Below are positions 12,666 through 45,145 of a DNA stretch of 64,000 nt, one piece after another. A model generated the notes under the pieces. It was not told where the DNA came from and did not search any database. It saw nothing but the letters and a program-made list of their open reading frames with translations. Location of the stretch: positions 434,001-498,000 of the forward strand of contig NZ_JASJOU010000005.1 in assembly GCF_030068605.1 (NCBI RefSeq), read 5' to 3'. Source of the stretch: Xanthocytophaga agilis (GTDB taxonomy: Bacteria; Bacteroidota; Bacteroidia; Cytophagales; 172606-1). Both the position numbers and the translations under genes were made by a program. The first letter of the stretch is position 1. The number at the start of each line of letters is the position of its first letter.

Positions 12666-12997
12666 GAGTACAAATCAACGAATATTGTCCAAAGGTAATA
12701 GAGAATCAGATAAAAGTATCTATCATCTGAAAGCAGCTAGTATTCGATTGATATAAAAATGGGTATAAACAGAAAATGACCGGAACTCAGTTACCACTTG
12801 TTGGTGATCTGAATTCTGGTCATTTTTCTTTTCAGAGAATTTAGATTCTCTTTGATTCTGTATCAGAATATAATCAGGATTTTTATATCGTTTTCAAAAT
12901 ATCAGAATCCTGATCAACCTACAGAGTTATCAGAGTTCTGATTATTTTCTTTTTTAACCAGAATTCTGATAACCCAGATGTATAACTTATGTACCGA
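12666..12997. repeat. Hairpin-rich spacer between susD-like and glycosyltransferase genes
   Basis: A 332-base spacer with several short inverted repeats in a row: 12773-12796 with 12802-12827 (about 20 pairs), 12834-12840 with 12845-12851, a GATTCTG/CAGAAT hairpin near 12853-12869, and three ATCAGAAT-type palindromes at about 12901-12914, 12929-12942 and 12958-12969. No gene was seen. The 12773-12827 hairpin is a plausible terminator for the SusCD operon. Confidence 0.6.
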
Positions 12998-14557
12998 TTA
13001 TTGTCCTATGGATTCATTATACAAGAGTTCACGTGTTGGGATAGCCCACACAAAATCTTCACTGGTATAGGGATCTGTGCCAGCACCCCGTTCTCCTTTT
13101 GGAATATCCATCTTTAACGCCCTCAGATAGTCAATCCGGTCATTTTCACCAAACATTTCAATGAGTCGTTCATCATGAATCATATTTTCGGTAATGTCGG
13201 CACCTGTCACCTCTACATAGGGTCCGCCTACAGTTGTATTCCAGGCTCTTTTGCGCACTACATTTAAATCTTCAGCAGCACCCGACTTGTCTCCAGCTTT
13301 AAACCGGCTGATGGAACGTGTCAAATAGATCTCTGCCAAACGGATAAGTGGCACATTGGTATTAAACTCTTTACCTCCACGATAGTATTTGTAGGGCCAG
13401 ATCGTAGTGATATCTTTCACTTCATTTCTTTCGTCTGTAGCCTGTCCTTCCTTGGCCTTACTTACAGGATATCTTACAGCAAATAATTGTGTAAACCGTT
13501 TGTCTCTTTTGGCAGCTACTTTCAGGGTCGTATCTGTTATCGGATCAGTCATCCAGCCTAGTCGCTTGATAGTACTATTGCTCATGCGTGTTTCTACCCA
13601 ACCACATTGTCCCCAAGGACCTGCAGAATGATTCAGAACAGTTAAATGCATAGGAGCCTGACCCGTTTCATCATAATAAGGCAGATAGAAAACAACCTCT
13701 TTGGCTCTTTCTATAGCACTCTTTGAAAATGCAGCAATAGGGTCTTCAGTCAAATTATATCTGCCTCCATTCTGATCTATGATAAAATCGGCTTCTAGTT
13801 TTGCTTTATCATACTCTCCTCTCTGAAAATAAGCTCTCATCAGCATAGCAGAAGCTGCAAATTTAGAAGCACGCACCTGATAAGATGGATGCATATCATC
13901 TTCATATTCTTCTGGTAATAGATCTTTTGCCTTCTGAAAGTCAGCTACAATCAAATCATATACCTCTTGAGTTGTTCCAATTTTAGGATTCTTTGCTTCT
14001 GCTACAGACTTCGGATACTTAGTAGGCATAGGGATATCTTCTGTATTATTAGCACCACCTGGCACATAGGCATGACCAAAGGTCGTTTCCAACAAGTAAT
14101 AGGAATATGCCCGGATAAAATACAGCTCCCCGACAATACGATTCACATTATCCTGAATGTTCTCTTCACTCTCAGTAGGAAAAGGATTGCCATTGTTTGC
14201 CTCTACAAACTCTAAAGCATTATTTGCCCCTGCAATAGCTCTATAAATCAGCAAAAAGCCTTTGTCTGTGTATTTGTTAAACTCTTTTGTCTTACGCCAG
14301 TAACCCCACTCCGCATTGTTTACCCAATCTACATCATCACCCATACTGGTTTTTACAATGGTGACATCTACCCAAGCCATATTCCAGCTATCACCACTGA
14401 ACAAGGATGCATATAATCCGATAGGTGCTCTTTCAAATTCTTCCACTGTACTCCAGGGAGTTTGTGGAGGCCTTTTTAATTCAAAATACTCTTCTGAACA
14501 ACCGCCTGATGCGAGTAAAAGCCCCAGCGTCAGGCTATAAAGAAGGATCTTTTTCAT
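12998..14557 (-). CDS. SusD/RagB-family nutrient-binding lipoprotein
   Basis: A 519-residue lipoprotein with lipobox SGGC (residues 17-20). It has the TPR-rich SusD fold: SEEYFELKRPPQTPWS at the mature N terminus, RIVGELYFIRAYSYYLLETTFG (the conserved RAYFYF-type helix), ASKFAASAMLMRAYFQRGEYDKA, and the C-terminal R-x-R-A-W and ENDRIDYLRAL regions. SusD proteins cap the TonB-dependent SusC barrel on the cell surface and capture the ligand. It lies 64 bases after the SusC stop. The substrate is unknown; no adjacent carbohydrate-active enzyme was found. Confidence 0.93.
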   Translation of the reverse strand: MKKILLYSLTLGLLLASGGCSEEYFELKRPPQTPWSTVEEFERAPIGLYASLFSGDSWNMAWVDVTIVKTSMGDDVDWVNNAEWGYWRKTKEFNKYTDKGFLLIYRAIAGANNALEFVEANNGNPFPTESEENIQDNVNRIVGELYFIRAYSYYLLETTFGHAYVPGGANNTEDIPMPTKYPKSVAEAKNPKIGTTQEVYDLIVADFQKAKDLLPEEYEDDMHPSYQVRASKFAASAMLMRAYFQRGEYDKAKLEADFIIDQNGGRYNLTEDPIAAFSKSAIERAKEVVFYLPYYDETGQAPMHLTVLNHSAGPWGQCGWVETRMSNSTIKRLGWMTDPITDTTLKVAAKRDKRFTQLFAVRYPVSKAKEGQATDERNEVKDITTIWPYKYYRGGKEFNTNVPLIRLAEIYLTRSISRFKAGDKSGAAEDLNVVRKRAWNTTVGGPYVEVTGADITENMIHDERLIEMFGENDRIDYLRALKMDIPKGERGAGTDPYTSEDFVWAIPTRELLYNESIGQ

Positions 14558-23934: not shown

Positions 23935-24066
23935 TCCTTGTATTGCTTTTACGTTTATTTTAAGAGATACAATCATATTTGCGCCTCATTCACAACAATG
24001 GTCTGGTACAAACGCGAAGAGATCTCTTGCCTGTTATCCAATAAAATGTGGGTTGTTCACAACAAG

Positions 24067-24145
24067 TTTTATTTTGACCGGAACTCCGATCACTTTTTTA
24101 TTTTGCTATCTCCTTACAATAACAAAAAAACTGATCGTAATTCAC
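24067..24145. repeat. Dispersed inverted-repeat element, copy A
   Basis: The first 27 bases (24067-24093) are identical to 44939-44965. A second conserved arm, CTGATCGTAATTCAC at 24131-24145, is nearly the reverse complement of the core and matches 45004-45018 with one change. The spacing between arms is conserved (about 37-38 bases) while the loop sequence differs. Confidence 0.75.
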
Positions 24146-24461
24146 AACACTCATTCATTTGCCACAAACTATGCCCAAGATACATCTTTGCAGGGAACAC
24201 AATGCAGGTCAATGTTATCTCGTATGAGCAAACTGAACCAGGTAATGCCACTGTTTATAAGTTTTCGCAAGGACAAAAATTGCATTTTTCTAACTCTACC
24301 TTATTTATCTTTTAGCTCACCACTTGATATTACAAGATCACAAAAATGGCCTAAAAATAATTGTACTTTTCATATAATCACATAATATCCATAAAACTAA
24401 ATAATTGATAAACAATTAATTAACAACATACCAATGTTAAATATTTAGTTTAAAAACCAGA

Positions 24462-44590: not shown

Positions 44591-45145
44591 GTATATAAAC
44601 TGAGGAAATAATGATAACTACCTCATTTATAACAACATGTTATACCTCAAAGTTTCAATCTATTGTAGATCAATAAATTACAATTTTAGCAATCCATGTA
44701 TCAGGTAGCTGAATAACTAAAAAATCAGAATACATGGCTTTCTGATCAGAAACTACCTCTAAAAGCTTGAATCATCCCAGGTTTCTCTAAGATAATGGAA
44801 CTACTTCTAGTTAGGATTTCTGATTTGCCTATAGTTCAGTTCAATTTTTTTTAGTGAAAGCAAGACATTAGGTCCAACCAATGAAAAGTTTGCGTTTTAT
44901 TCCCTATAGCTTTGGTTTTATGCATAACTCACAGCGGATTTTATTTTGACCGGAACTCCGATCACCTTTTCGTCTTGCGCATTATTCACGGCACAAACAA
45001 AATCTGATCGGAATTCACCGCAAGCAGCGAACTTCTCTGAACTATACGCAAGCCTTTTTTTGTAATAATATAAGTCTATGTGTAACTCTCTAGACAACCA
45101 TCTAACTATGATTCGGAATCACTTAGGTACCGCGTGTTAATTGAC
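44591..45145. other. Gene-free spacer of 555 bases with a dispersed element
   Basis: It contains copy B of the dispersed inverted-repeat element (44939-45018). No open frame looks real on either strand. It must hold the promoter of the M23 lipoprotein gene and the end of the murG transcript. Confidence 0.65.
44939..45018. repeat. Dispersed inverted-repeat element, copy B
   Basis: The 27-base core at 44939-44965 is identical to 24067-24093, and the arm CTGATCGGAATTCAC at 45004-45018 pairs with the core over 11 of 12 positions. Between the arms the two copies differ in sequence but keep an almost equal length. Confidence 0.75.

What the first reader, a model, noticed from the sequence alone, without database searches (positions are those of the whole stretch)
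24067..24145. Dispersed non-coding element with an identical 27-base core and a conserved distal arm (copy A)
Bases 24067-24093 equal 44939-44965 exactly, and about 38 bases later both copies have CTGATCG(T/G)AATTCAC, which pairs with the core. Loop sequences differ but the loop length is nearly constant, the pattern expected of a structured RNA or a small inverted-repeat element rather than of chance. The GACCGGAACTC word also opens the hairpin at 12773-12827.
Basis: seen in the sequence. Interest (0 to 1): 0.57.

Follow-up and report, generated by a model that had tools for sequence, protein, structure and literature searches.

The report
Modular interspersed DNA repeat, Xanthocytophaga
The two matching stretches belong to a family of repeated non-coding DNA arrays scattered between genes in one bacterial genus; they look like an ordinary kind of bacterial repeat rather than a working RNA, and so are of modest interest.

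Summary
Bases 24067-24093 and 44939-44965 are identical, and the distal arms follow 38 and 39 bp later. The family is far larger than two copies: at least 59 loci at E<=1e-6 in this genome and many in Xanthocytophaga flavus, but nothing beyond single weak matches in 146 other relatives. The 79-base hairpin is not the unit. It is a slice of a modular array (up to ~290 bp) of ~20-bp dyads spaced 28-29 bp apart, built from three half-site types meeting at AATT. Arrays are intergenic, never between divergent genes (0 of 36), and tend to follow gene 3' ends. Whole units are gained or lost between orthologues, and some arrays sit at synteny breakpoints, including both ends of a 150-kb inversion. The two carrier genomes lack Y1 (REP-type) transposases. 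Best reading: a new genus-restricted family of a known kind (BIME/BOX-like interspersed mosaic repeats), evolving by recombination between units. Its mobiliser and any function are unknown.

The parts
24047..24212 (+).
   Evidence: nhmmer E 1.5e-28 at contig C5:458047-458212
24075..24092 (+). Core dyad (c-c type) of copy A, TGACCGGAACTCCGATCA
   Evidence: sequence
24131..24145 (+). Distal arm of copy A (part of a c-a dyad)
44824..45081 (+). Copy B: near-complete modular array
   Evidence: nhmmer E 2.1e-54 at contig C5:478824-479081
44947..44964 (+). Core dyad (c-c type) of copy B
   Evidence: sequence
   Evidence: sequence
   Evidence: sequence
12773..12827 (.). Hairpin that shares the GACCGGAACTC word; not a profile member of the family
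   Evidence: z -7.4; absent from the hits

Best explanation
The finding is two copies of a genus-restricted, non-coding interspersed mosaic repeat. Each copy is an array of ~20-bp dyads built from three half-sites (a TTGCGGTGAA, b TTGCGCATAA, c TTGATCGGAA) joined at AATT, at 28-29 bp pitch. Arrays are DNA-level repeats of BIME/BOX type. They lie between genes, mostly just after a gene's 3' end; they gain, lose and swap units by recombination between near-palindromic units; and because units can align in either orientation, arrays can also serve as sites of larger rearrangement. SHOWN: copy number, modularity, pitch, location bias, unit gain and loss between orthologues, lack of RNA covariation. 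INFERRED: recombination as the cause of the unit changes and of the breakpoints, and selection as the reason why divergent (promoter-bearing) gaps are avoided. UNKNOWN: what first dispersed the family.
For: Copies: 146 model matches in the own genome (150 of 4253 candidates scored), merging to 59 loci at E<=1e-6 and 83 at E<=1e-3; many in G001. Modularity and pitch. All 11 full c-dyads in contig C5 are intergenic, where 19% of the sequence is intergenic. Context: 23 tandem, 13 convergent, 0 divergent of 36 scored; expected share divergent 58 of 183 gaps, P about 1e-6. Array nearer the upstream stop than the downstream start in 16 of 23 tandem cases. Unit changes: L036 lacks one 29-bp unit that its orthologue L046 has; L026 has one extra against L053 (my reading of the sequences). 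Breakpoints: 3 of 8 C5/C55 synteny junctions lie at arrays, including both ends of the 276.6-426.5 kb inversion (P = 0.02). No strand preference of folding.
Against: Transposition itself is not shown: no clean empty site and no target-site duplication were found. At copy B the congener has 101 bp of different sequence with a hairpin. Dyads diverge less than linkers between orthologues (125/1599 against 54/449, P = 0.008), so some constraint is possible, although they do not differ clearly from flanking intergenic DNA (P = 0.07). The breakpoint statistic is small and was made after seeing the pattern.
Confidence: 0.7

Rival explanations
1. A structured RNA family encoded by the dispersed copies, with the core and distal arm forming its stem.
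For: Single copies fold better than dinucleotide shuffles: copy B z -3.5 (+) and -4.9 (-); 32 copies mean z about -3.9 on each strand.
Confidence: 0.07
2. Bidirectional transcription terminators or mRNA 3'-end stabilisers: the hairpin-and-T-run units end transcripts of the upstream genes.
For: Never between divergent genes and usually after a 3' end; in the congener a hairpin that looks like an intrinsic terminator stands where copy B is.
Against: Best terminator-like score downstream of array genes does not differ from that of other genes (median -6.7 in 29 against -6.3 in 315), and several array genes already have a strong terminator before the array.
Confidence: 0.12
3. A MITE or REP-type non-autonomous element mobilised by a transposase of the same genome.
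For: Dispersed copies, self-complementary units, differences between the two species at single sites.
Against: No Y1_Tnp (REP/IS200-type) match in G000 or G001, while the 5 other relatives tested, none of which shows the repeat, all have it; no fixed ends or target-site duplication seen. Other transposase families were not searched.
Confidence: 0.25
4. An array of binding sites for a dimeric architectural or recombinase protein; the half-site consensus is what is kept.
For: Fixed consensus half-sites without compensatory change beyond shuffles, regular pitch, dyads less divergent than linkers, breakpoints at arrays.
Against: No candidate protein; a pitch of 28-29 bp is not in phase with the helix (own arithmetic); a crude test for a dif-like site found nothing above its control.
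Confidence: 0.12

Closest known systems
REP/BIME elements (PMC2817692 abstract; PMC3733652 abstract)
   Same: Short palindromic units, regularly spaced in mosaics, high copy, downstream of genes, between unidirectional and convergent genes, often species-specific
   Different: No GTAG/CGTC-tagged unit seen; no Y1 transposase match in the two genomes that carry it; half-site mosaics at 28-29 bp pitch
BOX elements of Streptococcus pneumoniae (PMC3049150, passages)
   Same: Composite of several module types with variable numbers of tandem modules, dispersed
   Different: Unrelated host; here the modules are dyads that share half-sites; BOX sequences themselves were not compared
STAR elements of Staphylococcus (PMC3532100 abstract)
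   Same: Intergenic interspersed repeats whose loci expand and contract
   Different: Described there as direct repeats with spacers; here near-palindromic units

Membership tests
REP/RAYT system | Cognate RAYT (Y1) transposase gene in the genome | tested here: not met
   PF01797: no match in G000 or G001
REP/RAYT system | Palindromic units in high copy, extragenic, downstream of genes | tested here: met
REP/RAYT system | GTAG or CGTC tag at one end of the palindrome | tested here: inconclusive
   Not seen in the consensus, judged by eye only
BOX | Modular composite with variable number of internal modules | tested here: met
BOX | boxA/boxB/boxC sequences | not tested
   BOX sequences were not compared
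MITE | Fixed terminal inverted repeats and target-site duplication | tested here: inconclusive
   No fixed ends in the alignment; no clean empty site
Structured RNA (Rfam type) | Covarying stem | tested here: not met
Structured RNA (Rfam type) | Transcript | not testable with these tools
   no expression data

The most novel reading that the evidence does not exclude
The arrays are docking sites of an unknown dimeric recombinase or architectural protein of Xanthocytophaga: half-sites are exchanged at the AATT centre, and this creates chromosome inversions such as the 150-kb one flanked by arrays.
Probability: 0.08. Interest if true: 0.6.

Novelty: new member of a known kind. Interest (0 to 1): 0.3.

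Why it matters
It is a repeat family that my searches found no description of, in a genus with little in print, and it occurs without the Y1 transposase that goes with REP palindromes. It could serve to ask how mosaic repeats persist once their mobiliser is gone, and whether palindromic arrays promote inversions. It also shows that good single-copy folding and a constant loop length do not by themselves indicate an RNA.

Tried and rejected
Rfam at gathering score and permissive: nothing credible. RNAalifold on both strands of 36 copies, a few of them orthologous: weak (-9.7 and -1.0 kcal/mol). A strand test by G-U against A-C mismatches looked one-sided at two positions; it was dropped because the copies were collected with a query carrying one of those changes, and because folding of 32 copies showed no strand preference. 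A sequence-independent scan for near-perfect dyads at 28 bp found no excess, so most units are imperfect dyads. Terminator role: no difference from control genes. dif-like site: 4 matches against 3 for the control pattern. Outgroup check of the copy B site in G002: only partial matches at 64-68% identity on two different contigs. Plasmid, phage and viral collections: no match. The exact 18-mer in genome contigs: 23 stretches, of which 5 are X. flavus contigs and 18 are single hits in other taxa. Papers: 'Xanthocytophaga' gave two papers, by their listing a name-validation list and a taxonomic description; searches on interspersed repeats listed no paper that by title or abstract describes this family.

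Full report
Observation. The exact 27-base match and the distal arms are as described. The window lies in G000 contig C5 at 434001-498000. The same-genus genome G001 has contig lengths equal to those of X. flavus YF14B1 records, so the window is taken to be from another Xanthocytophaga; this is an inference.

Copies. A blastn with copy A gave 40 matches in the own genome (40 of 73 candidates scored) and with copy B 44 (40 of 92 scored). A sequence-only model from 32 copies gave 146 matches (150 of 4253 candidates scored); many are the same locus on both strands or in two pieces. Merging those within 600 bp gives 59 loci at E<=1e-6 and 83 at E<=1e-3. Both are lower bounds. Of 148 genomes searched, G000 included, only G000 and G001 have more than one match; G029 and G137 have one weak match each and 144 have none. 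With the blastn query G024 also had one weak match. G002, placed in the same genus but 72% complete, has none.

Anatomy. Mapping three half-sites over 40 loci (39 with an anchor) gives dyads at recurring positions relative to the distal arm: -192, -98, -70, -42 (the core), -14, +15 (the distal arm), +43 and about +72. The commonest spacings between dyads are 28-29, 56-57 and 84-85.

RNA test. The local dyad has 3 cells changed on both sides (192 of 500 shuffles reach this); a longer pairing has 8 (300 of 500). The high pairing percentage therefore follows from a shared consensus. Folding of the same 32 copies gives mean z -3.85 (+) and -3.92 (-) for the core region, with the minus strand lower in 17 of 32.

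Context. With a home-made gene caller, 36 of 40 loci not known to be orthologous could be scored (L021, L033, L036 and L110 skipped): 23 tandem, 13 convergent, 0 divergent; element orientation in the tandem cases 12 same, 11 opposite. On contigs C5 and C55, 25 loci (some also in the first set, some orthologous to each other, and including the 12773 hairpin and weak matches) again gave 0 divergent. Density differs between contigs (14 contigs of known length, P = 0.008). Copy A lies between a leucine-rich-repeat gene and an AnmK-type kinase gene; copy B between an M23 peptidase gene and a GT28 glycosyltransferase gene.

Evolution. Between G000 and G001 many array sites are shared. Copy B's site holds other sequence in G001. 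Copy A's site is a junction with about 28.6 kb between the flanks in G001. The C5 345-kb array is replaced by a different repeat-rich stretch. Single units are lost or gained (L036/L046, L026/L053; read). In L038/L056 one dyad differs at five of 18 positions, four of which form two complementary pairs (read), as conversion of a unit would give. The 150-kb inversion has arrays at both ends in G000 and none found in G001. In G001, arrays lie in junction gaps near 589.1 and 611.4 kb. The count of 3 of 8 junctions used 15 array loci in 183 gaps, one of the 15 being the 12773 hairpin, which is not a profile member. Across 16 orthologous pairs divergence is 7.8% in dyads, 12.0% in linkers, 9.6% in the rest of the element, 9.3% in flanking intergenic DNA and 7.6% in coding DNA (the coding part of L033/L048 looks misaligned and was kept).

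Driver. Y1_Tnp is absent from G000 and G001 and present in the five other genomes searched, G002, G003, G004, G006 and G007, none of which shows the repeat. A REP/RAYT system is thus not the present driver in these assemblies; a lost one is possible. Other transposase families were not searched.

Comparison. From abstracts (PMC2817692, PMC3733652, PMC3532100, PMC2267715) and passages (PMC3049150), the nearest kinds are BIME/REP mosaics and BOX elements. The location bias matches that reported for REPs in the abstract of PMC3733652. I file this as a new family of that general kind, not as a member of REP/RAYT.

Noticed in passing
window 12666-13000: Intergenic stretch with the 12773-12827 hairpin is 97.9% identical over 335 bp in G001, more than most flanks compared on these contigs; hairpin z -7.4. 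It may be a conserved terminator or regulator after the SusD-like gene.
   Followed up: partly
L138:6450-6950 (G000:C5:426450-426950): Divergent tandem array in which one half of a unit complements a half of the next unit, at one end of the 150-kb inversion.
   Followed up: partly
G001:C55:495559-524196 (ends in L097 and L098): About 28.6 kb in G001 stands where copy A lies in the window's genome.
   Followed up: no
G001:C55:397800-398340: Another repeat-rich stretch with different words replaces a family array at the orthologous site.
   Followed up: no
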